A DNA stretch of 64,000 nucleotides from Ischnura elegans (taxonomy: Eukaryota; Arthropoda; Insecta; Odonata; Coenagrionidae), in the NCBI RefSeq assembly GCF_921293095.1, contig NC_060249.1:74287907-74351906 (forward strand), given 5' to 3'. The position numbers were made by a program, and so were the translations under genes. Shown here in pieces: positions 3,804-40,259 of this stretch. The notes under the pieces are model-generated. The model was given only the letters and a program-made list of their open reading frames with translations. It was not told where the DNA came from and made no database searches. Numbering within the stretch: the first letter of the stretch is position 1; every line of letters starts with the position of its first letter.

Positions 3804-3950
3804 CCAATGACTCCATTCTTCCGTTGCTACCGCGTCGGTTGTTGGTTTAAGACAACAGTGCTGGCACTGCTGCCAGCGTCTTCAGATCGAAGAAAAGGTT
3901 GTCTTAAACCAACAACCGACGCGGTAGCAACGGAAGAATGGAGACATTGG
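3804..3950. repeat. fold-back with 46-bp perfect arms and hammerhead-like loop
   Basis: Arms 3811-3856 and 3898-3943 are perfect reverse complements over 46 bases and extend by six more matched bases after one mismatch. The 41-base loop, read on the minus strand, contains CTGAAGA, a hairpin with GCTGGCA/TGCCAGC arms (stem II), then ACTGTTGTC. The arrangement is that of a type I hammerhead ribozyme whose GAA before the final A has been lost. The arm next to the core (TTAAACC with GGTTTAA) is placed to extend stem I. Confidence 0.85.
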
Positions 3951-4439
3951 AACCTCGAAAACGCGGAAACCTAAGTAGTCACATTCCAAGACCTGGAGTT
4001 GACGAAGCAGCGAGTGCAGAAATTAGATGGATATAGTGAGAAATAGGATTTCCTGATGAATAAAAGAAAGGTAACTATGGAACAGCATGCGTCAGGAAAG
4101 GACCCAGTGCACAGGCCAAGTCATAAAGCATATCAATCACGTTAGCAATGTAAAGGAGGGAAATTTGAAGGTAAGGTTCCCCAAGAAAGATCGAGAGATA
4201 AGAATTTGGGGCAGATGAAGAAGAACGCATAGATGAAGAACTCGAGGAACTAAAAGAATTAGTCAGAGAAAAGGAAAAAAGAGAGCTACATTATATCTAT
4301 CTCAGGATTGCATTATTACAAATGTCTGAAATGAGCTCCTTTGGTTAAATTTTTCTCTAGGATAAACGTCTCGAAATATAATGCACTGACGAAAAAAATC
4401 AGAGAATCCATGAAGGTTTTGCACAATTTGGGTTACTTG

Positions 4440-4599
4440 CAGTGGCGGATCTATGGGGGGGGGGGGCAAAGGGGGCTATAGCCCCCCTTGGGTATCCAAT
4501 GTACACTAGATAGATTGGTAATTTTTCCGACCACCACTACTGCTGGAATTTTAACCCCCACTTAGCTCCTCCCTTGTCCCTATCCTGGATCCGCCACTG
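4440..4599. mobile_element. hAT-type MITE, 160 bp
   Basis: Left end CAGTGGCGGATCTATGG and right end (reverse complement) CAGTGGCGGATCCAGG share 12 perfect terminal bases. Flanking 8-bp repeats GTTACTTG (4432-4439) and GTTGCTTG (4600-4607) match at 7 of 8. The interior holds a 12-base G run and a GGGGGCTATAGCCCCC palindrome. No coding capacity. Confidence 0.88.
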
Positions 4600-4607
4600 G
4601 TTGCTTG

Positions 4608-7600
4608 TAAGTAAGAGTATTTGTACACTCCACGGAAAAAATATAAGCCACGCCCATAGTGCCATTTTTATAATGCCTACACTTCCAGAGATCAATGGTC
4701 AAGAACGGCGGTGTCCATAAAATGCCGATCGTAGCACAAAAATGAACATATTCGATCGCACAAAGTAATATGTTTGGTGATTAAGAGTACTAGATGAAAT
4801 TATTATAACCTTTTTTTAAAATTAAGTTCTGGTCAACACTTGACCCTATATTATATATTAGCACCAAAATAAAACTGAGTTAAATATGCGGCAGTTGGAG
4901 AGGAGAAGTGCAAATTAGGATGCAATGAATGCAGGAAGATTTAACCACGCACAAAAAGCAATGAAAACATTGTTAAGGGGACATCAGATAACACCAAATT
5001 ATATACGATCCAAATTAAAATAAAGGAGTTTACAGCGGAAGGTAGTTGAATCGGCCCGATGCGACGGAAATAATAATCACTAACTTCATTTATATTGATA
5101 ATGCGAAAGAGGAAAAAAGAGCAAGAGTCAAAAACTCATGTCATCTAAATGATAATCATTATTTTCTCCACGACCCAAATAAACGCCGCAGAACCCATAC
5201 GGCGTCTTGGGGTTGCATCAAGATTAGGGGACTTTAAAAAAAAATCCCCCTTACAGCCGCAGTTTCACCCGAAACTTGGCGATCGATGAATTTTCACCCA
5301 GGGGGAATGTTTTGGGTAACGCGGTCCTAAGAGCGACCACATTTTACATTCCTTAACAGCTACCACGACTCGACCCTCATTAGGGAAAGATAAGAATCTT
5401 ATTCAGCGTTTCCCTGAACGTAATTGGATGTCATTTTGTACGTTATGTAGCCATAATACAACTGCGAACAAATCTTAACCGGGCTCTCGTAGGTCCATAC
5501 CTTGACTCGCTCTCATTTGGAAGTTACTTACAGTTAACAGAGGTTTTTAGAACTGGTGTTTGCTTCCATATTCTACCACGACAACTTAAAAAATGCTAAT
5601 GAATGGCAGAAGAAATGGCGAAACCACAGCATTCAGAGCACAACGTCACGACGGATGATGTCTCTTTCTATGAGAAAAACAATTAAATATCTTTTTCGTA
5701 AGCTCTGCTAGCGGTCTGGAGTAAAGACATTAATTACTGATTCAAATCAGCGCATTAGACTGAAACACATATTTTAGGCTATTATTACAGAAAACTTAAT
5801 AATATAAAGCGTGAATATTAATAATATTAAAAAAAAATTCCCGTATTTTTCACATTTTGGGTCCGTTTTTTAATATATTTGCATGGACATGACCTGAAAG
5901 GAATTAGTGAAAGCAGATAACAGAGTAAAATAATGTTTATACTGTAAAGTGGTTAAAAAAGTGGTTAAAAAAGTCCTGGAGCATTGAGAGAATATAATTA
6001 GCCGAATAAGATATAATAATAATGCTATGTAGACGTATATATGTAAACGTAACAGAGAGAGGAAGAGAAAAATGCAGGGTTAAGAAGAGAGAGACAGGTT
6101 TAAAAAAATAAGTGCCTACAGAAATCTGAATAAACGAAACACACAGGGAAAGTAAAGAATTGAAATTAGGGTTTATAAGGAAGCTTGGAATATATATTAT
6201 CGTACAGTATGGGCTTATGCTACCCAAAACCGAGAATTATCCAACATAGACTGTGAGAAAGACACCATAAATAAACTAATAAAAAGAATTGACAACCATC
6301 TGCAAAGAGTGATGTGAATACGATGTCATAAATATCCTTTCCGACATGATTACGGAGAAAAAGTATGTACTTATACTTCTGAAAGGATAAGAGAGCTGAC
6401 AGTGTTTCACAAACTGAACTGACAGAGGAAAAATTCAGACGAAAATGAGGAAGAGAAGGATAACTTACAGGCCCTTGCATTTACAAAAAAATCTTGATTT
6501 GGGCCTGATAAACCGCTAACAGCTGAATTTCTCGTCACTAAGGATAAAAGGATGATATGAGGTACTTCAACAGGCTTATTAGGGCCTCCGTCATAAATAA
6601 ATTATAGGTAAATCAAGAATTGGGTCTCATACCGGGCCAAAAAACCATCCTAAAATTGGAACTGGATTGCCGGAATCGGACTGAAGAATACGACCTTAGC
6701 ACGAATTCGATCATATTCTGGAAAAATTAAAGGCGCTATTTAAAAGTTTTCGAGCGACAGAAAATTGAAATCAGGTGATTTACTAGCTCACAATTCAAGT
6801 CCTTTCAACATTTATTCCTGTAAAACGTGACAGCAGGCGCATTTATCACATATGACGTAACGAACCTAATACAGGAATACAGACAAGTTTCGTAACGACT
6901 TCAAACATTTCCTTAGAATTGCCGACAAAGATAAGCGACTCTCTTGATATGAACACGATTCAAAGAAAAGTCTAATGAGTAATCACCGAATCAGCAACAT
7001 CTTCGTAGATGATAAAGTCGGTAAAGGAAAAATCGCACGGCTATGGAAAAAACATATTTGAGAAGAAATGAACTTCAGTATCAGACCCGTGGCAACAAAA
7101 AAATAAATGAATAATTATTATCTCTTTCCCGGCAGCAACCTACTTTAGGGGTGAAAGGGACGCATTGGGTTAAAATGAAGCCTGCTTGCACATTCTTGCG
7201 GCACCCTGGCACGAAGAATAAAATAACTGCGACCATATCCATACGATGAGGCCGCATTTAATAATGCATAATTTTCTTCGCCACAATAGTACGAGCAAAG
7301 AAATGGTCGTTTTATTTCATACGACGTAAAAAAAGGAAAGATAAAATAGCCAGAGGTTTATGGCGGTCGTCTGTACCGACTATACTGAACAGGAGGAATG
7401 AGGCAAAACACTCCCTAGTATCATTATTTAACAAGAAATGGTAAAATTTTCATACCACGTTCTCTAACCTCGTTTGCTGGAATAGAGCGAGCTTCTAGAC
7501 AACTTTAGAGTGGAATTGGTACAGGAACACGGAATTTGCTGATCAAAAAGTGGCTACTGAGAAGGCAAAAAATAAAGTTAAAAAAAAGCACATTCGATCC

Positions 7601-8340
7601 ACTTTTAACATTGAAAAGTACAATAAAAATCTAAATAAAACCATTGAAGGCAAATATTTAAAGAGGTTTGAGGATGAAGGTACATTAATATTTGAAAGTA
7701 AATTCCGACAGTTTCTACGTATAATTCAAACATTTTACTAATACTGTAAATTTTATTGGAACTAAGAATGATTTTTAATGTTCAAAATCGAATCCGAGGA
7801 ACTAAAACGGAAGTATTGATTGCATTTATAGGTTGCCGCTATCCGTAACTAAGTTTGAAAGAAATGAGGTATAAAAATAATCATACGAAACATTAACAAC
7901 TCGAAAAAGAAAATTTATATTCTAATAATCTATATTACAGTTTCCTTGGCGCGAGGTACACATAGAACTTCCCAACTCTTCGGAGAGTTAGTACCCTCAA
8001 GAAGAATGGAGGCCAGCACGGAAGAGGTAATGGAGTGTTTGGCCATCATAATGGATCATGGAACAAAACTGGGAACTATTCAAGTTTCCACGTTCTTATT
8101 ATGAAATACCTTCCAAAGATGTCATCAATAAAGCTGTGCAGTCGGATCCTTCTTAAAATAAAGAGACTTGGTACATGATAGTTGGCTTTGTTCTCACTAA
8201 CTGCCAGCTGCTTTTTGATACGATAAATAGCAAAATGAGTTACGATGAGATCCTCTCGAGGTCCCACCCAAACGTCATTGTCGGATTACTTTCCGCCCTG
8301 CCTTCCCTCGTGCCGTCACATGACCGACGAGGGTCAACAA
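4608..8340. other. no gene recognised
   Basis: Open frames up to 96 codons lack domains. The only oddity is a tandem GTGGTTAAAAAA pair near 5948. Several fragments look like old repeats but could not be named. Confidence 0.55.
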
Positions 8341-8351
8341 GGAGGGCCCGA

Positions 8352-8720
8352 TGTGACCTATGCTTTACGCATTACTTATCATAATGTAATAATATCATGT
8401 TTTTTTTGTTATTTAATAATTTTAAGTTATTCTTGAATGGAAATTTTAAGGCTAGAGCTATATACTAGTTGTATAATATTCGAAGTTGTTTAAACTCCTG
8501 GATAAAATGGATTAGTTCATGACCTAGCGATGATTTTCATTGACTTTAAGTCTTGGACATTCATTGGAACTATATGTGGCCATTCGCTGGATTTTAAGGA
8601 CATTCATCGGATTTTTTACGTAGTTTTCCTTTCACCACTGTACCTTTGATCACTATTCATTTACATCAAGAAAAGAGGATTAATTTCACATTTGAACCTT
8701 CAAGATTAAGAAAAGTCTAT
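8352..8720 (+). mobile_element. possible Gypsy-type LTR
   Basis: The stretch begins TGTGACC right after a purine-rich AAGGAGGG tract (polypurine-like). It is followed at 8722-8730 by TTGGCGCAG, resembling the primer-binding sites of 297/17.6-type Gypsy elements. Three imperfect copies of a GGACATTCATTGGA-like unit lie at 8555, 8578 and 8598, with a fourth at 8783. No gag, pol or second LTR was recognised, so this is a hypothesis. Confidence 0.27.
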
Positions 8721-9039
8721 ATTGGCGCAGTTTGACGGCATTTCATTATCTAAAATCAAATTTTGGAAGTTTACTTCTAAAGTGGACATTCACTGGTGCG
8801 ATTGTAATAAAAATAGTGGCGTTCGGATGCATGCGTCGTCGCTCCCGATTTTTCGCCCGAAGTACTTATTAATTGTGTCTATAATTTGTGTCGATTTGAT
8901 TCGTGAAGTACCGTCGCTTCTGATTTTCTTCATGAGAACTTTTCCTGGACAAGGGTGTTTGTGAAGTGTGTTTAATTGATTTGTTGAATTAAAAGTGAAC
9001 GTTATATCATTAACCAGAGAAAAACGTGAATAACGCGGA

Positions 9040-9385
9040 AGGAGGTAGCCGCCGAGCGGGGCCGGAGTGCGAGGCAGAATTTTGGAGGCCACGAATGCAT
9101 CCATCCATCTTGATCCCCTGAAAAGGGGCCAAGAGGGAGGAGGAGAATTAATCAGCAACTTTTTGGAGCGGCGATCGTTGAGCGCATGGCTTTCCCGGGG
9201 TCGGCAAGTGGCCGGCACCGGGGGTCTCTCGTCGGGAGCGTTGGCCCCCGAGGGCCGTCGTTGCCGCGGGCGGTAAATTCAAGGGGAAGGATTTCCATCG
9301 GAGACGGCCGGCCCGGAATAAATTGGCGGGCAATAGGGCCTACCCCGTTCACGTCGGTGCGTTTAAGGCCGATAAATCCCGAGAC
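9040..9385. other. GC- and CpG-rich block
   Basis: The stretch is clearly richer in G+C and CpG than its surroundings (CCGCCGAGCGGGGCCGG near 9050; GGCCGTCGTTGCCGCGGGCGG near 9250). Overlapping open frames exist on both strands, but none shows a domain. It could be a CpG-rich promoter or 5' exon, or the leader of the possible LTR element to its left. Confidence 0.35.
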
Positions 9386-9391
9386 CAGAGG

Positions 9392-9506
9392 CGATCCATC
9401 ATTTAAAGATTGCCCAGTGCTCTACCGGTCCACCTACCGCAAGTCCTTCGACCTGTCGTACCTACCTGAACGAATTTCAAATTACAATTGTGCCATTCGT
9501 CCACCC
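9392..9506. repeat. diverged duplication, copy 1
   Basis: Shares with 9927-10043 the ordered blocks ATC-ATCA-TTAAAGATTGC, ACCGGTCCACC, CGACC-GTCG-ACCT-CCTGAA and ATTACAAT. The two copies lie 535 bp apart in the same orientation. No coding similarity recognised. Confidence 0.7.
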
Positions 9507-9926
9507 AGTAGAAAGCATTCTCATCTATTGCGAAAGGAGACCCAATTCATTAACTGAAGAGATAAATATCAGACATCAAGGATAGATAGGTTTTCATCAA
9601 CATTTATAAATAAAACATAAGAACATAATAATTAACACTATGTTCATACATTAAATTCTTTCATTTGCCTACTGACAGAGTAGATAGGAAATAGTTCTCC
9701 ATCAATTACAAAGCATTCAAAATACACCAAGGATGTATAACACAAATAATTCAATCAATGTAAAATAAACTAAGTTACTTTTCATTTTTTTTCTAATGCT
9801 TTTTGTATTTTTCCCATTCTAGATCCTTATATTATACTCAAGCGAAAGCATTAAGTTAATAAACACCTGTTTCTGATAAAAAAAATCACGTCGCGGTATA
9901 TTTACCGGCGCATATTTAAAATAGAA

Positions 9927-10043
9927 AATCAATCAGTTAAAGATTGCGTGAGTTTTAGTTTTACCGGTCCACCGTCCTAACTCCCTACGACCCGTCGAAC
10001 CTGCCTGAATTTGATATTACAATAGCTATTCCCATTCACCCTG
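9927..10043. repeat. diverged duplication, copy 2
   Basis: The second copy of the unit at 9392-9506, with small indels. Weaker similarity appears to continue about 100 bp further (ACATCAA-GATA segments). Confidence 0.7.
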
Positions 10044-10066
10044 AAAAAATACGCTCTTCTGTTGTA

Positions 10067-12170
10067 CGAGGTGTCCCAACAAAAGAAAAATAACAAACAT
10101 CAACGATAAATTACTGATTTCATCGACATCAAACATTTGTCACAGTGACGATCCGCATTAAATCGACACATGGCTCTCACATTTGTTTTAATGTGCAAAT
10201 TTGTCCTTTTTCTTTTACCTTTCCAATGAGTAAATAAAACATAATGGGTACAGAAATAAATCATATTTTCAATATTTTAACCGTAAAATCTCATGCATGA
10301 AATTTTATCCATTCCGAAAAAATACGACTCCCATTATTCCATTAAAAACAATTAAACCAAGATTTCATGAGTCTTCAATTGCATGCAGGATTTTTTCAAT
10401 CTCTTCTTTCCATTTTTCTACTTTTCTGCATTCAAAACTTATTATTTCATAATTATTCAAATAATTAATGCGTTCCATCCATGAAACAACTAATTCTTTT
10501 AGACTAAAATTAAAACTATCTGGAGAGATTTCTCATGCTCTGCATATTCAGTCAAAAATCCAATAAGGTAGAATAATAGTCCAAACTTTCAGACGAAGAT
10601 ATCAGGATAACGTAAAATGGTATGAATTTCTTCATTAACCCGATTTGTAGCTTAGCGTATCACAGCAAGGTGCTTCTTTTTCCAAAAAAACGAAGCACAT
10701 AATTGATAAAGAAAACAATCAGGAAAAGAACATTAATTGAGAAACCATATAAATAATTACGTAACGCGGATCAAATAATATACAATAAAGACGAAGGAGG
10801 CTATATAATAACGAAAAATAATAGCAAACACATTGTACATGACTTTAATCCATTCCAGATTTTTCGAAATGGAATAGATATTAAAATGAATTGGCTAAGG
10901 ACATGAGAATCGATATAAAATAATCAAAAACATTCGGAGAAAATACTTGAAAAACGGAAGCTATTATCGTTATATCAATTGATAAGGTAGAAATGATACC
11001 GTAACCGAAATTAGAATCTAACATTCTCACTTCTCAAATTTTCTTAACCCAACTTACTCACCCAAAGAAATCCTATGCTAATACCAGGAAAATAATATTA
11101 TCAACCAAAGAAAATCAACATGACGGTATATTTATACAGCGACACCTGCAAAAAAAAACACGTGCAAGAGAACGTATATTTCCCCAAACCTGCATCTGAC
11201 AGCTTCATTACCAAAAAGAACCAGGAAAAACCCATTGCTAGTGGTAATTTTTTGTACATGGAGGAGTCTAAACCGCCTCCTCACGTCAAGTGACCGTAAT
11301 AAATAGCACGAACTCCATGGGAACGACCGGAGAAAAAATCACGCTAGCCGCCGTACCGTGACAGTGAACTAGGATACCCAATCGCGCTTCTGCTTTTCGA
11401 GACAACCCGACCCAGCTGCACCCATAACGATTTATTGAGCGCACCAAAACTTCCCTATTTATTGAGACGCGTTCCGAAATTTTGCTGCATAAAATCCAAT
11501 TTTAAAGCTGGGAGAGATTTTTGGCTTAAAAAAAAAAACTTGAGGGCAGAAAAAAGCATCTAAAACGTTCACGAAAGTTGCAATTCACCCACTCCTTGTC
11601 ACTTACTTATGATGTTACGGTTGTAACCGACTACGGCTAGATCAAGAACTCAAATGTATGGAGCTGGGATGGTTCATATTATTCATTCTCGACAAATAAA
11701 TTTCGAAATGTAAATTCACTGTTCGAAATGTAAATGTAATGCATTATGTACCGAAAATAAGAGCACTGCTAAAAATATTACGATAAACACAAGAAAAAAT
11801 ATACTTTTCTCAAAATTATAAAAGAAACATTAAATTATTTCGTATAAAATTCGATCACACCAAAACCGAGGAGAATGAAATTATTTCGCATAAAGTCGCT
11901 CGAATTATCAAAACTCATTGGTTTTTTCAGATAAATGGAAATATTTGAGTTAGTTTAAGTTCACATATTCTGTAAAATCGCAGTAATATACAGTGGTTAC
12001 AATAATTCGGATCGAAGAATTACTACAGCATTACTATCACCATGATTAAGTTCCAAAACTCATGCAAAAAATTAAATAGAATTTGTCCAGCCGGGAGGTT
12101 GACGATTACATTCATAGGGAAATGCCATAGAATATTTCTCTTGAATGAATAAAACTTCGAGAACGGGCTT
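10067..12170. other. no gene recognised
   Basis: AT-rich with no open frame over 60 codons. Only the hairpin at 10670-10698 stands out. Confidence 0.6.
10670..10698. repeat. short hairpin
   Basis: GTGCTTC and GAAGCAC are perfect 7-bp arms, extended by T4/A4 around a CC centre. No associated gene. Confidence 0.5.
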
Positions 12171-12380
12171 CCTTTAAGGCTCAAACCCCTTAGCCTAGCC
12201 ATAGGGCAGTATATGAGAAGGAGAAGCGTTGATTAGATCATCTAATCAAGGCTCTTTCTCATATACTGACTGGCCTAGTTAGGAATAATTATCTTCGAAT
12301 TAGTTATCTTAGAATTAATTTATCTTCTGGACTTCAAGCCAGGAAAGGGCTTATAGGCTAAGGGATTTGAGTCTTAAAAG
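12171..12380. repeat. nested fold-back repeat, 210 bp
   Basis: Outer arms 12171-12197 and 12354-12380 match as reverse complements at 24 of 27. An inner hairpin (12194-12237 with 12241-12283) shares CAGTATATGAGAA and ends in a perfect TTGATTAGA-TCA-TCTAATCAA tip. About 70 bases lie unpaired between the inner and outer right arms. No hammerhead core and no clear target duplication. Confidence 0.75.
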
Positions 12381-12539
12381 AACATATGTTACTAGGTAGG
12401 CATTCGGAGTATGCGATCTTTGCGTCGATTACTTCACAACCCTTAGGTCACTAAATTTTCTGATCGATACAAACACCTGATCGACAGCACCACCTTTCGT
12501 CAGGCCCAAAATATTTTCGAATATCTCCCCCAGGATATC

Positions 12540-12660
12540 AATTTCTTTCCCCATTTCCCGACAGCCCCCTATTCAATACATCTTCGACCCTCCGTTTTCC
12601 CTCGAATATCTTCCAAGAGCTTCCTCTCTACCCAAACCTTGTCGGGCATTAATACATTTG
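12540..12660 (-). pseudogene. possible LINE tail remnant
   Basis: The minus strand reads VERKLLEDIRGKTEGRRCIE and, after a stop, GKWGKKLISWG, loosely like the GE-LLEDVIEGKIEGRRPRGRKR tail of arthropod LINEs. The match is short and degenerate. The open frame that continues to 13038 on this strand shows no recognisable domain. Confidence 0.3.
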
Positions 12661-19779: not shown

Positions 19780-20100
19780 TGGGATCCTTGTCTCCGATGG
19801 AAAGGCGTGGGCGGGACGACCGCTACTCCGGGGGGTGGACACGTACCCCCCCTCCCCCAGCCGATCCCCTTATGACCACCACCCCCTTTCGTGGGGAAAA
19901 TCGAGCGAAGCCGAGGCCATACGGAAGTGCTAGGAGGAGTGGATGGATGGACGGGGGAAATTTCCCGCGCCTCCCTCCCCCGCTCCGCTGGGAACAGCAT
20001 TCCATCCGTAAATATTTACTCTCTCGGTCCAGGTTACGAGGTAACCTCGTCACCACCGCCATGCCGCTCCAATGTAAACATGGATACGTGCATCCCGTGG
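19780..20100. other. GC- and CpG-rich block
   Basis: Rich in CpG with C- and G-runs (near 19850 and 19970). A long plus frame crosses it into the RT fragment at 20180, but its residues here are low-complexity (Pro/Arg/Gly). Possible CpG-rich promoter or repeat-derived sequence. Confidence 0.35.
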
Positions 20101-20179
20101 AGCGCGGACCGAAAAATTAGCGACAACAAAATCGCGTACAACCGAATGGGACCCACTCGAGCAAAAGAGGAGTCGAGAT

Positions 20180-20667
20180 GTAAAATAATCACTTGTCAAC
20201 CGATATTTCAAGCGTTCTTCACCACTAAAAAAAATAATTCCTTCCCCGTCACCATGTCTCAAGCAGCATTCTGTCACATGATTCAAGAATGTGATCAGGA
20301 TGTGAGGAAAATTATCTCTGATATCCCAATGAAATGCCCAGGATATGACAACATTAGAATGAGAGATCTGAAAAATCCTAATTTTAATGTAGAAATGTTG
20401 ACTAGCTTCATCAACAATTGCCTCGAGCATGGTTTTATACCACAAAATCTGAAACTTGCTACCTTTATCCCTGTTCATAAAGGGGGAGGTAAATCTGACT
20501 TCAACAATTATAGGCCAATTTCCGTATTGAGCTCAGTTGACAAAATCCTAGAAAATATATTTATAATCACCTTTTACAGTTCTTGAATGCCAAAAAAAAT
20601 TTTATCCATCTATCAGTATGGGTTTCAAAAATCAAAGAGCACCAAAGACGCTCTTGAATGAAATCAA
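20180..20667 (+). pseudogene. reverse-transcriptase fragment of a LINE (N-terminal RT part)
   Basis: The continuous frame contains CPGYDNIRMRDLKN, LEHGFIPQNLKLATFIPVHK and NNYRPISVLSSVDKILE, the classic first motifs of LINE reverse transcriptases (Jockey/CR1-like style). A frameshift near 20580 moves the next motif (YQYGFQKSKSTKDAL) to another frame, after which similarity fades. The catalytic YADD region is absent, so this is a truncated copy. The preceding 400 bp, open in the same frame, is GC-rich and shows no RT similarity. Confidence 0.8.
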
Positions 20668-23602: not shown

Positions 23603-25627
23603 GATCAACTTTCAGTATCTATCATTCCTTTAATCTATATTTACTGATATGGGGAGCGATAAGAACTTAGATCTTAATTCGATACTCATATGGCTCAGGG
23701 CCCTTGGTCCACTACTGTACCGTTGCAATGGGAATGCTTTTCAAACCTTTGCTTCGTACAAGATTTTAATTGCGCCTAGTCTAGTTGGAAGATTGCTACA
23801 ATCAATTAGAATCACACATTATACCATCTTGAAACACTATACACGCTTCACAGACGCCATGGTTTTGTGCTTCGGGATGGAAGAAGGCTCGCATTTGTTG
23901 GCCCGTAGGGAAATTGCCCTTCTTGCTTCCTTTTCCTTCTCCTGTTGGGACGAGCCAAGGCGCACGAAAATTTCGTGAAAAAAATATAAGTATTCTATCC
24001 TAAAAGCAAGTATGTATGTGCATAGTTCCACATGCCTGAAGCACCTCTGAGCTAACAGCAAGGCAATTCCGAGAAGATGCTTCCTTCGTAAGGACCTATA
24101 TACTCAAATAATTAAATAATTATCCAGCTATAAAATGATCCCCAAGCTCTCATTGGAGTACATGAACTACTGTTAGACTTCCCAAATAACCGATCAAACT
24201 AGGGGAAGAAGCGCAAACACTACGACGAGTTTCAATGGAAGAACAGATTTCCCATACCTGAATTTACTGACCAAGTGACTAAGGGAGAAAATAACAATAA
24301 AAATGTTAAAATGAAAAATTAAAAAATTGAGGAGTATCGAGACTATCTCAGGGTTTTTGACTGTAGATGATAATACTTCCCACTAAATTTTATTTTATCA
24401 TAAAGATTCCGGGCTTCGTTAGCAAGTATAAATATATGCTCTCCCAGTTTATTCTTCCAAAACAGAGAAATGTCAACGAAGTCCTTTGGAAGCCAACCAC
24501 CAACAGTGCCATCCTACTGGCTCTCGATTTTTCCATAGCAAAATTTGCTTTTGATATCTTAATATATTGGACGGTTCATTGCAATCGTTTGAAGTCATCA
24601 ATCAGCCGCTTCATCTAAATTGGCATCAAGAGTGCGATTGAAACTACAGTTAACGATGAAGAAATGAGAAGCATTAAGTAGGTTAGGAGAGAAGGCGGTG
24701 AACGGTATGAGGGGCCCGCCGGATTACTGAATAGGAATGGGATCAATTTTCTACCTGAAGATAATGCAAAGTTATTGAAACCAAGGCCGGTAAATAGTCG
24801 TCTTAGAAAATTAAGGTGGGGAGTTGCATCGTCTTGTCGTTCAAAAGATACCATTCGGTAATTCTTACCTCGACCTACTGTCTATCATTTCCCTCGTTCA
24901 TACTATTTTTTTTAAATGTTGCTGTATTCACATTCATTGGCCCAGAAAATAGTCTACTGGATTTAATCATCAAGGCTTATCAAACATTTTGCATAGAAAT
25001 TTTGCATAAATATACTGTAAACAATATGAATTCACGAGTTTCGTTAATTTTCTTGCTCCAAGAAATCCTTCAAGGTGGGAAAATTTATTTATTTCCTATT
25101 AAAACGAACACTGTCAGAAAATATTTCGCTATGGAGTTAAGTTTTCATGTTTTCACTATAGAACCAAATACCGTTACCTCCACTCCTCCAACCCTATTGT
25201 ACCCATAACATTCTTGAGGAGAATAAACCTGCCAAGCTATCCATAAAACCACAAATACTTTAATTCCAAACATATTGGACAACTAACAGTTGGTCGGATT
25301 TTTAAAATTTCTCGATGGCATGATAGAGGACAATGAATTTAAGGGAGTTACTGATAGCAACACATATAACTGATACTTAAAGCGATTAAAAACTACCTTC
25401 ATTTCCTGTCTTATCTTCAATTTTAAAACATATATCTCTTATGTCAAATAAATGGCCATTGCTTGTCTATCAACTCGGAGTCGACCACAATTTTACTTAA
25501 AAACTAGCTTTAAAGCCAGTTAATTACGAATGGGAGTAATAAAAGCATAAAGTAAACAGGATTATTATTTTTCCATTCAAAATATTTACGATGGCCTATT
25601 AGAATGGGTTATGCTACCCTATACTTA

Positions 25628-26700: not shown

Positions 26701-26745
26701 TTTTTCTAATACTTTCTTCTTTCTTTCTTTCTTTCCATACACTAC
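26701..26745. repeat. TTTC-rich simple repeat
   Basis: A CTTT/TTTC microsatellite of about four perfect units within a pyrimidine tract. Confidence 0.8.
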
Positions 26746-27957: not shown

Positions 27958-27965
27958 GCCTACTC

Positions 27966-28273: not shown

Positions 28274-28281
28274 GCCTACTT

Positions 28282-30094: not shown

Positions 30095-30099
30095 CATCA

Positions 30100-30268
30100 G
30101 GAAATAAAGAAATAAAACTTTGTGAGGTTCACTAATATTTAAATATGGGCACGACCCGGGTTTCGTAACGTAGTTACAACACCTGAAGATGTAAATACTT
30201 TACGAAACCCGGGTCTTGTCCATATTAAAATAATAGTGAACCTTACAAAGTTTTATTTCATTATTTCC
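30100..30268. repeat. fold-back with about 70-bp arms and hammerhead-like loop
   Basis: The left arm (30100-30172) and right arm (about 30196-30268) are roughly 88% alike as reverse complements, including CCCGGGTTTCGTAA. The plus strand at 30183-30215 reads CTGAAGA, T, GTAAA-TAC-TTTAC, GAAA, CCCGGGTC. These are the core, stem II, GAAA and a short palindromic stem III ending in a GUC-type cleavage triplet of a type I hammerhead ribozyme. The inverted arms continue as stem I, with some bulging next to the core. Confidence 0.82.
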
Positions 30269-30396
30269 AACATGGAGAGGTTTCACAAAGTAAAGCCTGA
30301 AGTTTTCAGTTATATAATACATCTGCAATACTGTCACCGTTACTTCTGATAAATCCATACGTAAGCCTTACATCAGACGTATTTTGAGACTCGACA

Positions 30397-30542: not shown

Positions 30543-30544
30543 TG

Positions 30545-33500
30545 CAGCTGATTCCCTCCCGGCGTTCCTTCAACCCGCAGACAGCCGACACACACTCGAG
30601 GACCTCTCTCCGCTCCCTTCGCCACCACCAACCGAAGCCGCGCTCGTAAACACGGACATATTAAAAACGAGGAGAACATAGCGGAGCTGGATGAGGGAGA
30701 GAGAGAGAGAGGAAGCAGACGTTACTCATGACCAACGGCAAATTCGAGATGTGGAGGAGAGAGAGTCGGGTGGGAAGATCGGAGAGGGGTGAGGGGGAGG
30801 AGGAAAAGACGACCTCCTCCTCGGAACTCCCGCTCTTCGACCCGCGTTTGCGAACGCAGAGCACATCACAAACCCAGTGCAAACAACTGTCCTACATGCA
30901 ACGTCCAACGTGGTAATACAACCGCAAATCTGGGGTAAAGGCCTCGATCGTCCTCAGCACCACGTCGCGAGGGTTCAAATCAGATTTATCACACACACTG
31001 CCCCCCCAAGTCTAAGTCTCCTCCCGACTGGGATCGAAATTACGACCTCAATAGATGCACATGTGCCCTCAGAATGAATCAGGGCCGCAGTTGAGGGAAG
31101 TTCAGGCGGTGGTAACCGACCCCAGAGGAAAAATAGGTTTTTCATCGAGGTCCTAATGAGATTCAACCTGTTTTCATCGAGATTCTCCAGTAAAACATTT
31201 AAAAAATAAATAATTAAACATAAAAATAGCTATTTCCTTGTTACTATTTATTTTTATCATTCATTATTTTTTTAATAATAAGCTTCCTTATTTAGGCAGA
31301 GAAATAGACAAAAGAAGTATACCAAAATTCTCCCCCTCAGTCATTTTTCTTTGACGTAGTAAGAATAAATACAGCTTCATCAGTCTACACACACACTAAA
31401 TTTAATAATAGGAGTTGTTAATCGATTAATACAGAGTCAAAATTAATAAGATGAACTGATTATCCTCACAAATCAGGAGCAAAGTATCCAACTGTGCAGT
31501 CATTCAAATTCTAATCATCTTAAACTTCTACATGACCTAAATACCCCAATTAACTTATTTTTGAGAGATAAAATGGCATTGTATTACTACACTACAAATG
31601 CAGATAAATTACACAACTAGTAAGGCAAGTTTTAAGAGGATGAAAGCCACGATTTTGCGGACAATAAATAGGGGAGTTCAAAGCTGGTTTTTCATTCGCT
31701 TCCTTGAGGGTTAAATTCTCATTATGAGATCGAAATTTCAATTACGATTCAGGTGCAATTACTTCCACATCAAAGTTCTATTCTCTCAAATAATCTTCCG
31801 ATTCAAGGGGAGAAATGTAATCAAGTTAGTAAATAACTACTATCATGCTACACAAGCAGGTTCATTGCACTCTGCTCTCCTATCTACTACTTCTGCTAGG
31901 GGTTATATCTCACTACCTCTCCTAAAATCCACTAACTGATTACTTTACTCGTCTCTAGTCTGCTGAAAATTATTTCCTTCAAGAAAGATCTATCCTTGTA
32001 ACTTAAGCTGATAGGGTGAATTTTAAACGACACGCAAGACCGCAAAAGTAATGCACAAATTACTCTTACCGCAAGAAATGGAATAATATGAAAACATCAT
32101 ATCACTATCAGTAATCCTATGTGACTAATTTATCACTGTTAACGAGTGAGCAACAGCCCATTCTGATACCCACGACGAAAAGCGAACGTAAAACGGAGGA
32201 GAAGGTCAAGACTTCCTCATACCTCGGCTATCCAGACGCGGAAGTTCATCACATTCAACAAATCCACCCTCCCACAAGGACTTAGATTAGGTTAATATGG
32301 TTTCATCCAAGGTAAAAAAAATTAACGAAGATTCACTCGTACATGGCACAAAAATGTGTAACCCAATTACAAAACAAAATATCACACCTATACTTCTACT
32401 ATGCTACGTGGGCGGGAAAGGTCAGGCGCATGCTGGAATAGGAGCATCTATGGTTACGGGATTTTTAAACGCGCTTTCAACGAGCAATTATTCACGTTAG
32501 CATAAAAGTGATACCAATGGGCTCGATTTATGCTTAAAGAAATGATGGACGGATTACCGACTCATAAAATCACTCACATTGTCTCACCTCAAAGATGTAG
32601 CTGAAGCCTATACGTCCGGAGCAGTTGTTTCCAAAAAAATGATATATTAAGACTCGGATATGGTCTTTGTTTCTTTCGGAATTTCACAGAAAGTCATACC
32701 AAACATTTTTATGGCAAGACCTGAGCAGGACCTGAATCTTCAGGAGCCATTGCAGACAAATAGAATTAACGAATAACTGACTTAATGGCGATGATTAAAA
32801 TGATAACTATTGAGATTGTCGAATGATTAAAACAGAACATCGAGGAAATCCTCATTCTATTTGTCTCCTGTCAAACCGCATCTCTTAAACACAATCCCAA
32901 AACAAATAGCCCGGTATACTTCGATATCTAGCGACAATTTAGCATCGGGCATCTAATTGATCTTACGTTGATACCTATAAACAAAGCTTAGACGGTACTT
33001 TCAGGGTATATACGAAAAAACTAGGTCCTGACTGAAATAATGGAGAACGTTAATAAAAATACTATAATTCAGACAAGTACGCCGAATCAGCTGGTAAGCA
33101 ACCTAGAAAAGAAGTAGGTAGTTCTAATACTAGTAGGTAGTACTATACAACATTAGAAAACAATCTTGATCACTAAGAGAACAGTGATACAAAAAACAAG
33201 GAGGTCGAGATCTGTCAGCAGAGAAGGAAATGCCTAACATTCCAAATATGGACACGAAAAATCCCCTACGAGAATCTTAAAGGACTGCTAAAAAGAGGGG
33301 GAAAGGGAGTAAGGATAGACTTCCGGGGAAGCGGGTGTAATTAAGCGTGGTTCCGCAAACGAGGGACCATTTCCCTATAAAACCACCGAAAACCCTCCCT
33401 CGTCCACCCTCACGAAAACATCCTACCAGCCCAGACGAAATGAGAGATCAATGACACTGGCTACGGAACGTAAACTTGTAAGACATCCACACACTCACTC

Positions 33501-36500
33501 CCGTACTTTCGCACGAGGTTCACCAACCGCAGTCCAAAAACAATAAACAGACCCACGGCACCGCTACATGCGATGCATTCGCTTATCGCCGTACGAACTG
33601 CCCCCGTGGAAACAATCACGATAACAAGAGGCGATAGATACATAAGATAACCACACTCCCATGTGATAGTGATGAGATCAGTCGCCGACTGTGAGAAGGT
33701 GGATCGGGCGGAAAGAGCATTGAATGGAAGAAGGCCAAGCCGTCTTTTCTAATTCCTACCTCATCTCCTGACTTCTCACGCCGAAATGAGAGAAGAGAAA
33801 AGGAGAAGACAACGCTGCAACGGGAAACAGAAATAGAACAATGCCGGTGGTCTACGGTAGACGTGAGGAGAAAGACAGGAGAGATGATAACTGTACATAC
33901 CTCCAAAAACAACTCTTCAAGCGAAACTGCCGAATAGCAATTCTCCAGCACCGGACGGACGAAGAGATGGACGGTGCCGACACAAAGAAGAACAATTGGC
34001 TGCAGTCCTTGCCGAGACGAGCAGCAACAGTGGGCAAAAGGTGTTATCAGTTGAAGGAAGGACCGGTGTAGGAGCACGGATTCAGGCTTGGGGAACACAC
34101 ACGATGGTCAATTCGCCTGGAAAATGACCAATGTTTAGAGCACTGGTAGCAGGCAGGGGATCCTAGGTCAGGCCAACACGACCGTCGAGGTTTCTTCACC
34201 ACCGAGTGCACCCACGGCTACGAGGTGAACTCACAACACTCACTATTCTCTCTTTCACACCTCCGGCGATTGAGCCAAACTCACCGGATCAATCCGGGAG
34301 AGAGGATTAACCTCTTCCGAGACATGGGAACGAACGCGTGGAAGACTAAGGACTCATACACACAACCGTTTTGGCTTCTTACTTCTGTCTGTCGGGGGTC
34401 GTTCCCTTTATGGCGTTCCGTTGCGGCGGCCGATGGAAGCAGTCACAATAGTTGACTCACGCAAAGCGAGCGCTGCAACATCTCGCAGGAGGAGAGTCGA
34501 CCGACCGAACGTCTCTTTCCCCTACCTCGTCCTCGTCCCCACGGTCTTTCTCGTATCTCCTCACACCACTTCTTGCACCTTTCCTCTTTTGTGCCCACTC
34601 CGTGGGTTTTAAGATGGCGATCGAGGAGACCGCTATGAGATTCTGAGGATTTATGCCGCGCCCCGACATCTACCGGCCCCTGTCTCAACTTCTTCCAATT
34701 CAAAAACAGTGGCTGGCGCTGTTTCGACGTTTTCGACTAATGGGACTGTAAAAGGGGAATAGAAATATTTTAGTCCTAAATAATACAATGATTCATAATA
34801 ATCTTTAAAAAAAATAGTTTCTATATTACTCATCGTGATTATTTTATGATAACGTGTTCAAAAAACAACAAATTGAGCACATCGTGAATATTCATCGGAG
34901 TGATCAAGCGCGATGTTTGAATCAAAATATAAGCAGGACAAGCATGCTCTTTCAAGAAATCTGCACTTATGCCATTGGTTTTGAGGAGTACAATAATCCG
35001 GGAAGGTAAAACGAAGCCAGAATATCTTAAACAAAGAAAAGTAATCCGTCAGTACGCGTAATACGCAAAATATATATCCCATATCATACACTTTCATAAA
35101 ACATCATAACAATCCTAAAATTTCTGTACATGATAATTCGTTAGATTTCCGATTATATCTAACGTAACAAAATAATTTGATGGTTATTAATTATCACTCT
35201 CTTCGTAAATCTCAAAACTTTGATTTCATTGGGCAGAACTTATATTTCCCTACTGTGAATTGAATTTCTAATACAAATATCAAATTTAATACCATCTACG
35301 CGAGCAGTTATTCGAAAAGTCATCAGGATAATAATTAAAGTGACTAAAAAATTAAAATCTGGCGAACAGTGAAAAAATGACGGATTATTAAATTTCTAAG
35401 ATTCGCTTCAGCTATGTCATTTTAATAAGTCATTTCATAGATATTATCGGCATATCAAACTAAAAAAATATAATTTATTCATCCCCCAATAACTTGTTGA
35501 GCCTATAAAGGAAGAAGTCCTGACTGATCTATTCATCAGGGAAGTGTCATTTCCCGTGACCACGTGATAGAACCCAGAAATTTGACGTTACCATTTGCTA
35601 ATTTTTTTTGGAATAAACAATTATAGGGTCTTTAACCAACTTACTTTTATAATCCTAGTAATAGCTTTACCTTTTGACCATGGTTTCTTTTATTGTAATA
35701 TTTTTATTTATTTCTAATTATTTTTAAACTAGAAGAAATTTATGTATTTTAGTCACGCAAAACTGTATTCTTTCGTCCAAATTTCTTTTACGATTCGATT
35801 TTCTCTCACAACTATGTCCAGAGGTTCAAATTCATAACTATTGTATTACTTTTCAACCACTATTATCTCCTTGGTAATGAATCATTGAGTCATTACAGAT
35901 GGGTGTTACCATTTTTCTCTTCAAAATAAAAATTCATATTACAATACCTTGTAAGTCTGCCTTGTCTAATTCTGCTAATAATATACAACGGAGGAGAGAT
36001 GATTCGCAGAACCTTGAATAAGATCTGCATTGTAACCTTCGGTCCAGAGCAAAGCACATAGAACCTGCTCTATGTGGCATAGAACTACACGGTAAGGCTC
36101 TGATGATTATCAGAAACAATTAAATGTTGCGATTAGTTTAACTCTTTGCACCAGTCCCAAATATAAAAATTAAGCCAATATTTCCAAATAGGCATACATA
36201 TTCTCCTGCTTAGATAAATTGCAAAAAATCATTCAATACATAAATTATAAAAGGACTGGAAAAACGTATGAGCAATGCCACTCATATTGAGGATCGAAGA
36301 CCACATGCAATTTAGTTCACAAAATAATGTAGGATTTAATGAAAAGGGGAGAATTTCCCAATCGTGAAATCAACCAATACTCAATTAAAATATCGTGCAC
36401 GACGATTTATTTGAAAGCTAAAGTCTGCGTAAATGTTTCGTAGAGAGAATACGTGAAAACAATAACGGGAAAAGTTGTAATAATTAAACATTGAAACGAG

Positions 36501-36879
36501 AAATGATTTAATTTTTGAGCAAAGTAACTTTTCAAATTTCAATCTTAAAATCAAAATTCAACAAAAATATCGAATGCCATGAGATGTGTAGTAAACAGTA
36601 AATTTTAAATAGGGAATAAATAAAAAGAAAAAATATGAACTACGAGTTTTTTGTGGGTACCTGCTCTATATTTGTTAGTTTCGCATCATGTTAATACAGA
36701 AAAGGTTATTGAAGCACTTTTAAAAAATTCCTAACCGTAGACACTAAAAATTTCTCCTTTTTTGAGAAATCACTTTCAGGGGAATAAATCTTTTTGTTTC
36801 TTTAAATATTTACATTTGAATGAAAGCTACATTATTTGCATTTTAATGGTCCCGCTAAGCATTAAGCTTATCAGCAGGT
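30545..36879. other. no gene recognised; CpG-rich patch at about 33660-34640
   Basis: The 33660-34640 patch has more GC and CpG than its surroundings. It includes AAGATGGCG (YY1/Pho-like) at 34611 heading a 10-codon frame. It could be a promoter/5' UTR of a gene on either strand, but no coding exon was found. A 160-codon minus frame (33616-34098) shows no domain. The rest is AT-rich. Confidence 0.4.
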
Positions 36880-37790
36880 TCCATTATTATCTTTACTTTT
36901 ACAAAACATTTATTAAGTGTTAACACATAGACAATATACATATACCCCCTAGCCACATAGAGTATTACATTATGACACTCAAAAACATATCTAAGAAATA
37001 ATAAGACAACCGTTTTACGATCTCTCCAGTAGGTGCTTTTTTAGTTTACTTTTTAATTCCCTAATAGTTTTTATTCTCTTCAAGTTATCTGGTAACTCGT
37101 TTATTGCCATTGGGATTTTAATATTCATTACACCTTTACCATAGTTGTTATTATATTTCGGTACATAGTAATGAGTAAGATTTCTCATTTCCATGGAGTG
37201 TTTGTAATCTTTGTGAATCTTTAATGTATTGTTGAAATAATTATTAATTACTAACACATAAATGTACAGGTCAGTAACCTTTAGTATACCGAGTTCTTCA
37301 TACAAAGATTTATTATGATCAGGAGAACCCTTGAGGGAAATACCTGCATTTTTATGGTTTGTTGTTGATTCAATCCCTGCGTGAATTAATTTGAGTATTT
37401 TTTTTTGAGTTTTTAACAGTGTCCTGATAGTATTGTGCAGTACTTCCCCAAATGGTAATTCCGTAGCGTAGTATTGATTCAACCAGTGCGTGATATATCA
37501 TAATCTTTGTTTTCTTTGGAACTAGGGTATTAATTTGATACATCTGATAATTAATTTTCCTTAGTTTACTGTTCATTTTAACTATGTGTCTATCAAATTT
37601 CAAATACTGATCAATGGTTATACCTAAGTATTTGTAATGTGTAACCTGTTCCAGAGGAGTGCAGTTACAAGTGCTAGAAAGGCCCTTTTTATGTAGACAT
37701 TTGTGGGTAATTATAGTAATACTTATAGAATTCAATCTGTCAAATGTACTATTTTCATCACTATGTTTTCTTTTTCGCTTCACCACATCT
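36880..37790 (-). pseudogene. LINE reverse-transcriptase C-terminal part plus 3' UTR
   Basis: Two overlapping minus-strand frames (37786-37370 and 37482-37015) read as one protein with one frameshift. The first gives HYKYLGITIDQYLKFD, NTLVPKKTKIMIYHALV and ESILRYGITIWGST. The second gives KTQKKILKLIHAG, SLYEELGILKVTDLYIY and KSKLKKHLLERS with a stop. This is the thumb and C-terminal part of a Jockey/CR1-type LINE. The frame break coincides with a run of nine T at 37398-37406. Downstream, the minus strand has an AATAAA-like signal and an A-rich tail around 36880-36915. It appears 5'-truncated and relatively young. Confidence 0.8.
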
Positions 37791-37799
37791 TATTGCAAT

Positions 37800-40040
37800 A
37801 AGTTTGTTGCTTAGAAAGAAATATCAAACGCCAATATTATGTCAAGTGCTTTCAGTTGATAATCAATCTAATTATAAATATACGTCAGTGATTAAGCACT
37901 TAACTCTAGTGTAAATATAGGTGCTCACATTTCGACGAAGGACCTCATTATATTCCAATTAAATAGTAAAGGCAGGTAACCATTTTGAGATAGTAAAGAC
38001 TTCTCCGTCAGGGTGTATGCACAACTAATCACTATGACGAACAAAACATCAGTCGCGGATTCAATGGGAGGGTTTTAAGGGGTCATGATAATTTTATCAA
38101 CAATTTATAATCAATAGTTTAACATTTTTGTATCCTTGTAAATGAGTAAAGGGAATGAGTATGCAAATTCATGCATACGAGTCCCAAACGTGAGAGATGT
38201 TTGAGTTATATTTATCGTAGAGTGTAGATCCTACAGTAAAAACAACAAGCTCAAAAATAAAATAAGCTATGCACTAACTTTTTAGGCATTAGGGAGCATG
38301 GATTTGAGTGTCTAAAATTTAGTTGGCTAACCCAAAGGGAGCATTAACTGGGATATGCTTATTTTTTCATCATTTTCATTATCAAAAATTTTACAAGAGA
38401 GAACGCCCCTCTCTCCCGGAGGATATTCCATTCTCCTCGTACCTAGATCATGACCCCCCCCCAAATTTGATGCTAAATCCGCCCCTATTACACATCTACA
38501 CACAAGTAGTTTCATGGAACCAAACATTAACTCCATGAAAATATGACGTAGCTAATTTCTTCTTAGATTAAACAGCTACTTTAAAGCCGATATGTTAGCA
38601 AATTTACACTACCAAGATTAATCCGAGCATAAGCAAAGAGAGCATTTTTGAAGCAAAGGCAGCAGGAAACAAAATAACAAATTTAAGCTGAGGTGAGTCT
38701 TGACATCGTGATCTTTCACTTCTCTCTTAATCCCAGATGATGTTGGTATTGCACTTAACTTGTATCGCCCGTCAAAGAGGTGTTGAAATGGATTGCAGAA
38801 AATCCTGAAGATGAATCGACATATTCTACTGCAAGCAATCGCTCCTCCCGAGTAAATGTGCCCTAAAACATCAGAAGCATGAAGCTTCAGACTAGGTAGT
38901 GAATATTTTAATAGTAGCAAGATCATGAAGAACCTCATAAAGAAATGTAATACTCCAGAAATCGAATAATTCTATTTCCCTAAGTATATATAAATGTGTA
39001 TTTCTTTTACGTCTCAGAATAGCCAGTTATGCCAAACTACGCCTCGGGAACTGCACTTTCGACAACGGTTAAACCTTCCTCTTTGCTGAAAACATCCTAG
39101 TTTCACCTTTCCTAAATAATGGCACGGTGAAGACGCTTGGTCAGTCATCACTCGTCACTTCACAGTCGTCTCTCAAATGTATCAAAGTACATGATAATAT
39201 TTATTTGATAAATACACGGGCCGTATGGCCTGTAATACCGAAGCGCCTCGATATACACCCGTGCCTTCACCAAGCGGCTCCTCTCCTTCCTTAGACATTG
39301 GTGATATCTTAAAATTTGGCTATGCTAGATGTACAAATTCAATAATTCATTCTATTCCCTTGGATTGATCTGTTAGGATTTTGAATGGGAATAAACTTTG
39401 GGTAAAGGCTTCAAATATTTGTGAGTGATAATTCACTTTTGAACACCAAGGGCACGAATCCACGTATAATACGACACGCAACTTCGGGTCGGGAAGTTCG
39501 AGAAAAGCACAGAGCGATGAGGACATATATAGGCGAAATACAAATATAGGTTTCTCGGCAAATATAGGTGAGGACGGCAAAAATGAAGGAAGATAAGAAC
39601 ACATTCAAACTGCGTGAAAACGTTTGGAACTATTGCGGTGCATTGAAGAAGTATTTATAAGATGTGATTGACGGCAGAGGTACTAAAAGCGTTATGGATG
39701 GTAGTTGCTCAAATTTTATACTACAAAGGAAAGTAGAAGTGAACAAGCGGATGTTGCAACTTCCTGTTTACAAGAGAAATTTGATATTAAGAAGACTCAT
39801 CACTCCCCACGACCGGTTGAATTTTGCCCTTTATCGCAAATTATAACTCGTTCAAAATTTGCATCATGTTCTTGAAAATTTCAGCGTATATTGATAAGAA
39901 TTTCGATAGTATATTCCTGGATCTCAAACATAAATTTACAACTGAGGAAAACCCGAGGTAAAAGTTTCAAAGTTGAAAAACAGGAAAATATTTAAAAGAG
40001 TCAATATTATGTTAGCTAAAAAAATTTAGGCAATTTCGCC
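37800..40040. other. no gene recognised
   Basis: A hAT-like end (ATCCGCCCCT after a C run, near 38450-38487) has only a doubtful partner near 38286 and no target duplication. Otherwise featureless. Confidence 0.45.
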
Positions 40041-40052
40041 GCGTTAATTTTC

Positions 40053-40101
40053 AGGTGGCCCCAACGTTTCCCGACGTCGTTGCTGGTCGCTTTTTCAAGG
40101 G
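40053..40101 (-). ncRNA. degenerate hammerhead-like motif
   Basis: The minus strand reads CCC, TTGAAAAAG, a stem of CGAC with GTCG, GGAAACGTT, GGGG. CCC/GGG would be stem I and ACGU a minimal stem III. The CTGANGA box is mutated. It lies 20 bp from the fold-back at 40121, so both may come from one Penelope-like insertion. Confidence 0.35.
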
Positions 40102-40120
40102 AATCTTATAACGAACAGTG

Positions 40121-40259
40121 AATATTAATTAAATTATACATTGCAGAATTTCTACAGAACTTATTTGAGCCCTTGATAATGTTGTTGTATGAAGCAACGA
40201 TGCGTGTCGTGCTCGCATAAGTTCTGTGGAAATATTGCAATGTATCATTTAACTATATT
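40121..40259. repeat. fold-back with about 43-bp arms and degenerate hammerhead-like loop
   Basis: Arms 40121-40164 and 40217-40259 are reverse complements at roughly 85%, sharing ATACATTGCA and ACAGAACTTAT. The loop reads GAGC, CTTGATAA, a hairpin with GTTG/CAAC, GATGCGTGTC, then GCTC. GAGC/GCTC would close stem I, CTTGATAA resembles CTGATGA, and GTGTC ends in the cleavage triplet. GAAA is mutated, so activity is not expected. Confidence 0.7.

What the first reader, a model, noticed from the sequence alone, without database searches (positions are those of the whole stretch)
3804..40259. A set of fold-back repeats with type I hammerhead-like cores at their tips
Three separate fold-backs (3804-3950, 30100-30268, 40121-40259) share one architecture: long inverted arms, then a loop with a CTGANGA-like box, a stem II hairpin and a very short stem III ending in GUC. 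The arms are positioned to act as an extended stem I. Their arm sequences are unrelated, so the architecture is repeated rather than one sequence copied. Minimal type I hammerheads are known in Penelope-like elements, but long perfect arms around them are less expected. This could be a non-autonomous self-cleaving fold-back family.
Basis: partly seen in the sequence, partly recalled or inferred. Interest (0 to 1): 0.75.

Follow-up and report, generated by a model that had tools for sequence, protein, structure and literature searches.

The report
Penelope retroelement fold-backs with hammerhead remnants
The three hairpin-like repeats look like short, coding-free insertions of Penelope-like retrotransposons: two copies of the element's control region, with its hammerhead ribozyme motif, joined head to head when each copy was inserted.

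Summary
The three fold-backs are real and each belongs to its own dispersed family in this 1.72 Gb genome. They are best read as Penelope-like element (PLE) insertions reduced to two head-to-head pseudo-LTR ends. Of 96 copies read, 95 have a 33-46 nt tail on exactly one arm and none on both. Variable target duplications of 8-16 bp are clear in FB1 and FB2, weaker in FB3. Arms match best within a copy and junctions differ between copies. A prediction held: two pseudo-LTR ends of an intact-ORF PLE of this genome, joined in silico, matched 29 places end to end at 91-99% identity. Hammerhead cores are far above chance in families FB1 and FB2 (17/32, 16/32) but altered in FB3 (0/32); of the window's own copies only 30183-30215 keeps one. 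The arms are not ribozyme stems, and self-propagation is not indicated. Apparently new: in PLE-B 25 of 34 head-to-head inserts end at the hammerhead, against 1 of 20 in PLE-A, which suggests run-off at the mRNA 5' end (inferred; no transcript data).

The parts
3789..3798 (.). left target duplication TCCAAGACCT of FB1
   Evidence: read; found by script
3802..3856 (-). FB1 left arm (pseudo-LTR copy without tail, reads outward on the minus strand)
   Evidence: family alignment
3857..3897 (-). FB1 loop with hammerhead remnant on the minus strand: CTGAAGA box 3885-3879, stem II hairpin 3877-3860, GAAA missing
3898..3952 (+). FB1 right arm (pseudo-LTR copy that carries the tail)
3953..3984 (+). FB1 tail, present on this side only
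3985..3994 (.). right target duplication TCCAAGACCT of FB1
30100..30178 (-). FB2 left arm (no tail)
30183..30215 (+). FB2 minimal type I hammerhead-like core: CTGAAGA 30183-30189, stem II 30191-30203, GAAA 30204-30207, GTC 30213-30215; overlaps the right arm
30190..30268 (+). FB2 right arm
30269..30314 (+). FB2 tail, present on this side only; no clear target duplication for this copy (4 bases shared)
40126..40170 (-). FB3 left arm (no tail)
40173..40208 (+). FB3 degenerate hammerhead: TTGATAA 40173-40179, GATG where GAAA is expected, GTC 40206-40208
40211..40255 (+). FB3 right arm
40256..40291 (+). FB3 tail, present on this side only; no target duplication seen for this copy

Best explanation
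Each fold-back is one insertion of a Penelope-like element in which only the pseudo-LTR end was copied, twice, and the two copies were joined head to head. Shown here: inverted arms with a hammerhead motif at the inner end, a tail on exactly one outer end, variable target duplications, junctions that differ between copies, arms more alike within than between copies, and the same structure built from the pseudo-LTR of a PLE with an intact RT + GIY-YIG frame in this genome. Inferred: both target strands are cut and each primes reverse transcription at one of two internal start sites (which gives the single tail), and the two cDNAs are then joined through microhomology. Inferred with less confidence: the cDNAs are short because they start at the 5' copy of the start site and run off the mRNA 5' end just upstream of the hammerhead. 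The hammerhead travels as part of the pseudo-LTR and was uncut in the templates of these inserts. For FB1-FB3 themselves no ORF-bearing source was found.
For: Tail on exactly one side in 95 of 96 copies, on both in 0, on neither in 1 (the queries held 8, 22 and 15 bases of the three tails). PLE-A long head-to-head inserts follow the same rule in 12 of 13 loci and 6 further pairs. Shared flank words of 8+ bases: FB1 20/32, FB2 21/32, FB3 5/24 against 0.35, 0.61, 0.26 expected. Arms within a copy vs re-paired: FB1 0.104/0.160 and FB2 0.071/0.084 (0 of 2000 shuffles each), FB3 0.162/0.175 (27 of 2000). FB2 junctions: 32 of 32 distinct; FB1 core loop reversed relative to the tail in 6 of 29 copies. 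In-silico PLE-B pair: 29 end-to-end matches at 91-99% and 7 at 83-89% among 40 scored; 20 read: duplications of 8-14 bp in 19 (0.26 expected), arm divergence 0.0099 vs 0.0177 (0 of 5000). Inner ends within 18 nt of the core in 32 of 36. PLE ORFs with RVT_1 and GIY-YIG and hammerheads in their pseudo-LTRs. Core to untailed end 80-86 nt in FB1-3, 84 in PLE-B, about 95-100 in PLE-A.
Against: No ORF-bearing PLE with FB1, FB2 or FB3 arms was found; the only matches in PLE loci were FB3 copies lying inside L114. FB3 is weak: few duplications, small arm effect, no intact core. The window's FB2 and FB3 copies show no target duplication. Arm-to-arm conversion could mimic the arm result. The run-off idea rests on position only; PLE-A lacks the short class, L166 reaches about 69 nt upstream of the core, and one PLE-B copy starts exactly at the predicted cleavage site.
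Confidence: 0.87

Rival explanations
1. Same PLE origin, but the palindrome arises by self-priming (one cDNA or an antisense template snapping back) rather than by two separately primed cDNAs, and the inner edge is set by local palindromes or a stall at the hammerhead instead of the mRNA end.
For: PMC3846280 (passages) proposes self-priming from palindromes at junctions. PLE-B junctions often fall in TAATTA or TTATAAT. Both arms share rare variants in 6 of 7 carriers, as one template would give.
Against: Snap-back does not by itself give one tailed and one untailed outer end. PLE-A has the same TTATAATTA beside its core yet only 1 of 20 short inserts. L136 has a variant in one arm only (could be a later mutation).
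Confidence: 0.35
2. A non-autonomous fold-back family that propagates as a palindrome and cleaves itself.
For: Hundreds of candidate places per family; intact cores in about half of FB1 and FB2 copies read.
Against: Left-left, right-right and left-right distances between copies are about equal; junctions differ (FB2 32 of 32 distinct, PLE-B 31 of 36); PLE-B fold-backs match an intact-ORF PLE. PLE-B does have 5 repeated junctions, explicable by microhomology but also by some re-use.
Confidence: 0.07
3. Ordinary terminal-inverted-repeat MITEs (cut-and-paste DNA transposons).
For: Short, high copy, inverted arms.
Against: The tail makes one end different in 95 of 96 copies; duplications vary from 8 to 16 bases; the arms carry a PLE-type hammerhead.
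Confidence: 0.02
4. The hammerhead resemblance is chance in ordinary hairpins.
For: Two of the three window copies lack the core; Rfam reports none; FB3 has 0 of 32.
Against: Core + stem II + GAAA + GTH in 17/32 FB1, 16/32 FB2 and 17/20 PLE-B copies, at most 0.10 expected per set; five families keep pairing in stems I and II with different sequences (chosen copies).
Confidence: 0.02

Closest known systems
Canonical Penelope-like elements (Penelope/Poseidon type; PMC11167929, PMC3846280)
   Same: Inverted pseudo-LTRs head to head, optional tail of 30-40 bp on one, short target duplications, minimal type I hammerhead in the pseudo-LTR, RT + GIY-YIG ORF in the same genome.
   Different: The units described here hold no ORF at all; in PLE-B most head-to-head neighbours (25 of 34 among the listed exact words) are of this coding-free kind with inner ends at the hammerhead.
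Metazoan non-LTR retrozymes (PMC7229834)
   Same: Small non-coding repeats with type I hammerheads, possibly mobilised by PLE enzymes.
   Different: Retrozymes are direct tandem repeats of 150-450 bp, mostly with canonical hammerheads, and make circular RNA; these are single inverted units.
Dispersed minimal type I hammerheads of animal genomes (PMC7761336, passages)
   Same: Same kind of core with very short stem III, in non-coding DNA.
   Different: Here they are shown to lie at the centre of dated PLE insertions.
Fold-back / MITE DNA transposons
   Same: Short inverted repeats in many copies.
   Different: One-sided tail, variable duplications, hammerhead core.

Membership tests
Penelope-like element insertion | RT + GIY-YIG ORF in the element or its source | tested here: inconclusive
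   Met for PLE-B, whose pseudo-LTR makes the same fold-backs. No ORF-bearing source found for FB1-FB3 (one search covers 30 GIY-YIG loci only).
Penelope-like element insertion | Pseudo-LTR ends, inverted head to head, with a tail on one | tested here: met
   95 of 96 copies; PLE-A 12 of 13 loci.
Penelope-like element insertion | Variable short target duplications | tested here: met
   FB1 20/32, FB2 21/32, PLE-B 19/20; FB3 only 5/24.
Type I hammerhead (minimal, PLE kind) | CUGANGA, stem II, GAAA, NUH and adjacent stem I | tested here: inconclusive
   Core: FB1 17/32, FB2 16/32, PLE-B 17/20, FB3 0/32; with adjacent stem I 15, 9, 13, 0. Window copies: FB2 only, without stem I.
Type I hammerhead (minimal, PLE kind) | Self-cleavage | not testable with these tools
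   Needs transcripts.
Retrozyme | Direct tandem repeats | tested here: not met
   No tandem array at the three units; PLE-B words: 34 head-to-head, 2 tandem, 0 tail-to-tail neighbours among 100 listed.
Retrozyme | Circular RNA | not testable with these tools
   No transcript data.
TIR MITE | Inverted repeats at both very ends and fixed-length duplication | tested here: not met
   One-sided tail; shared words of 8-16 bases.

The most novel reading that the evidence does not exclude
Some PLE families regularly turn their own mRNA into coding-free fold-backs: reverse transcription starts at the 5' copy of the internal start site on both target strands, runs off the mRNA 5' end just upstream of the hammerhead, and the two cDNAs are joined. 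The two start sites are used once each per insertion, which points to a dimeric enzyme with two distinct roles. Such inserts would account for many minimal hammerheads scattered in non-coding animal DNA, could be hairpin RNA sources, and their junctions would map the 5' end of the PLE mRNA.
Probability: 0.4. Interest if true: 0.72.

Novelty: new variant of a known kind. Interest (0 to 1): 0.55.

Why it matters
PMC7761336 (passages) says thousands of minimal type I hammerheads lie dispersed in non-coding animal DNA and that their role in PLEs is a mystery. Here one class of them is the centre of head-to-head PLE insertions. Each insert records where both cDNAs started (one tail) and ended (at the hammerhead), so many natural products are at hand to test how PLEs integrate; PMC11167929 calls the later steps yet to be validated.

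Tried and rejected
Rfam scans of the window, of PLE loci and of the genome: no hammerhead reported even at intact PLE motifs, so not used as evidence either way. The miRNA-like Rfam hits are below their gathering scores and fit any long hairpin. MITE rejected by the one-sided tail and variable duplications. Chance core rejected for FB1 and FB2 by shuffles. Arms as an extended stem I rejected: most of a second copy of the core region lies between arm and box. Local palindromes as sole cause of the short inserts doubted, because PLE-A has the same motif without the short class. Test of PLE-A 5' leaders failed: the locus chosen (L173) runs from the tail into DNA that is not the PLE ORF. PLE-B 5' ends: among 40 scored candidates three places reach the query's end without its start, from query 214, 240 and 533, with the hammerhead at 206-239; too few to decide. 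Pfam PF26215 (recalled) is not in the library. No covariance model was built. The organism was not identified.
Full report
Setting. The window lies in an unnamed eukaryotic assembly of 1.72 Gb in 110 contigs. I call the three fold-backs FB1 (3802-3952), FB2 (30100-30268) and FB3 (40126-40255). They are the only ones with ungapped arms of 45 bases or more within 1000 bases; a gapped search also ranks 17054-17943 and 43166-43288 above FB3. Folding z-scores are -13.5, -15.0 and -9.6.

Each is a dispersed family. Whole-genome searches scored the best 40 of 943, 1961 and 347 first-look candidates, so counts are lower bounds and the copies read are the best, not a random sample. I read 32 copies of each (L001-L096).

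Anatomy. The inverted arms are not the ends. Beyond one arm, and only one, lies a conserved tail of 33 (FB1), 46 (FB2) or 36 nt (FB3) on the consensus. With a score cut-off of 25, 95 of 96 copies have it on exactly one side, none on both, one (L086) on neither. The queries held 8, 22 and 15 bases of the tails, a mild bias. Outside arm and tail are target duplications of variable length: shared words of 8 bases or more in 20 of 32 FB1, 21 of 32 FB2 and 5 of 24 FB3 copies, against 0.35, 0.61 and 0.26 expected from mismatched flanks (a narrower version is). For FB3, 8 of 32 copies were left out by the arm-score and length limits. The window's FB1 copy has a 10 bp duplication (3789-3798 and 3985-3994); its FB2 and FB3 copies show none.

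The hammerhead. The inner part of the arms reads as a minimal type I hammerhead. A descriptor (CTGANGA, stem II of 3 or more pairs, GAAA, GTH soon after) is met on either strand by 17 of 32 FB1, 16 of 32 FB2, 0 of 32 FB3 and 17 of 20 PLE-B fold-backs, with at most 0.10 expected per set from Markov shuffles; an adjacent stem I of 3 or more pairs is added in 15, 9, 0 and 13. FB3 reads TTGATAA in its consensus, that is C3 to U and G8 to A, a change on both sides of the C3-G8 pair (the pair swap C3G/G8C is described in PMC11167929). In one chosen copy of each of five families, stem I has 3-5 and stem II 5-7 pairs while their sequences are unrelated (a second chosen FB2 copy, L022, did not match my pattern). 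Of the window's own copies only FB2 keeps box, stem II, GAAA and GTC, with a mispaired first stem I position.

Link to Penelope-like elements. A GIY-YIG search lists 149 matches. L127 and L128 hold frames of 832 and 816 aa with RVT_1 and GIY-YIG domains. PLE pseudo-LTRs here hold minimal type I hammerheads in two main sequence families, which I call PLE-A and PLE-B. PLE-A loci are often head-to-head inverts; among 13 distinct loci with both arms, 12 have the tail on exactly one arm and L113 on neither (L114/L115 and L119/L120 are the same loci). Six further paired places show the same: tailed arms end at query 298-303, untailed at 260-266. From the first core base to the untailed outer end is 84 nt in PLE-B, about 95-100 in PLE-A, 85, 86 and 80 in FB1-FB3.

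Prediction test. If the fold-backs are PLE inserts, a PLE with an intact frame should have its own. I joined two PLE-B pseudo-LTR ends and one tail from L129 in silico and searched the genome. Of 40 scored candidates, 29 match from within 3 bases of the start to base 199 or beyond of 209 at 91-99% identity, 7 more at 83-89%, and 4 match only part. Of the best 20 read, duplications of 8-14 bp are seen in 19 (L140 only 5; 0.26 expected); arms within a copy differ by 0.0099 against 0.0177 when re-paired (0 of 5000 shuffles); a variant at arm position 46 is in both arms of 6 of its 7 carriers. That they carry one tail is not independent, since the query held one.

The palindrome is made anew per insertion. 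(i) Arms of one copy are more alike than re-paired arms in FB1 and FB2 (0 of 2000 shuffles each) and weakly in FB3 (27 of 2000); left-left, right-right and left-right distances between copies are about equal (31, 32 and 17 copies). (ii) All 32 FB2 centres read differ, 29-52 nt, some by point changes only; in FB1 the core-bearing loop faces the other way in 6 of 29 copies (a 30th, L052, has another centre). (iii) In 36 PLE-B fold-backs (20 and 18; L139 and L140 dropped) the longer arm ends between 3 nt inside and 42 nt upstream of the first core base by an ungapped rule, 32 of 36 within 18 nt, with microhomology, short palindromes or AT-rich filler at the joins. A gapped check puts L166 at about 69 nt. 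The 36 centres are of 31 kinds. Arm-to-arm conversion could mimic (i) but hardly (ii) and (iii).

A short class specific to a family. Of the first 100 of 361 exact PLE-B arm words, 34 neighbour pairs are head-to-head, 0 tail-to-tail, 2 tandem; the space between the words is 104 nt or less in 25, 314 in one, over 800 in 8. Of the first 100 of 152 exact PLE-A words, 20 pairs are head-to-head, 0 tail-to-tail, 3 tandem, and 1 of 20 is that short, the rest 175 to 3409 (Fisher p 6e-7). Exact words favour young copies. PLE-A has the same TTATAATTA just upstream of its core, so a local palindrome alone does not explain the PLE-B peak. In PLE-B the frame starts 84 nt after the first core base, so the mRNA 5' end could carry the start sites, and reverse transcription from there would run off at that end and give such short cDNAs. 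This is inference; no transcript data were seen. Against it stands one PLE-B copy that begins just after the predicted cleavage site (query 240).

What is known. PMC11167929 (parts 1 and 2 of 4 read): an Anolis PLE protein cuts and extends both strands, starts reverse transcription at two internal sites whose interval is the tail, and uses unprocessed RNA as the dominant substrate. PMC3846280 (passages): A. vaga inserts with inverted pseudo-LTRs, a 31-bp tail on one, duplications of 8-10 bp, palindromes at head-to-head junctions, and a self-priming proposal. PMC7229834 (part 2 of 6 and passages), PMC7761336 and PMC6155905 (passages): minimal hammerheads in PLEs, dispersed copies, retrozymes. 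Two further papers on PLE hammerheads, cited in PMC7761336, are not held. Coding-free PLE fold-back families were not seen in the listings, which does not show absence from print.

Verdict. The thing is a PLE insertion product, not a self-cleaving fold-back family of its own. Apparently new are the coding-free class, its inner edge at the hammerhead in at least PLE-B, and the near-absolute rule of one tail per insert.

Noticed in passing
window 24755-24800 (+): A further hammerhead-like core (CTGAAGA, 4-pair stem II, GAAA, GTA) with no stem I pairing and no fold-back around it; possibly an old PLE pseudo-LTR.
   Followed up: partly
window 16608 (-): A weak descriptor match to a hammerhead core with a 3-pair stem II and 2-pair stem I; may be chance.
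   Followed up: no
window 43166-43288: AT-rich imperfect fold-back (74% identity, E 3e-13) without a GAAAC...GTC core by eye.
   Followed up: partly
window 12207-12268, inside 12169-12382: Short hairpin nested inside a second, wider inverted repeat.
   Followed up: no
window 19876-20586 (+): Open frame that looks like a non-LTR reverse transcriptase piece (NYRPIS motif, recalled).
   Followed up: no
L032 and FB3 family: FB3 hammerhead box has changed on both sides of the C3-G8 pair (TTGATAA) with GAAAC and GTC kept in the family consensus.
   Followed up: partly
G000 C1:23134907-23135242: A PLE-B copy whose 5' end lies exactly after the predicted hammerhead cleavage site, next to an inverted second copy.
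   Followed up: no
L130: A PLE-B copy flanked on both sides by a long tandem satellite with a period near 175 bases.
   Followed up: no
L129 1864-1880, L173 250-262: PLE-A and PLE-B share TTATAATTA just upstream of otherwise different hammerheads.
   Followed up: partly
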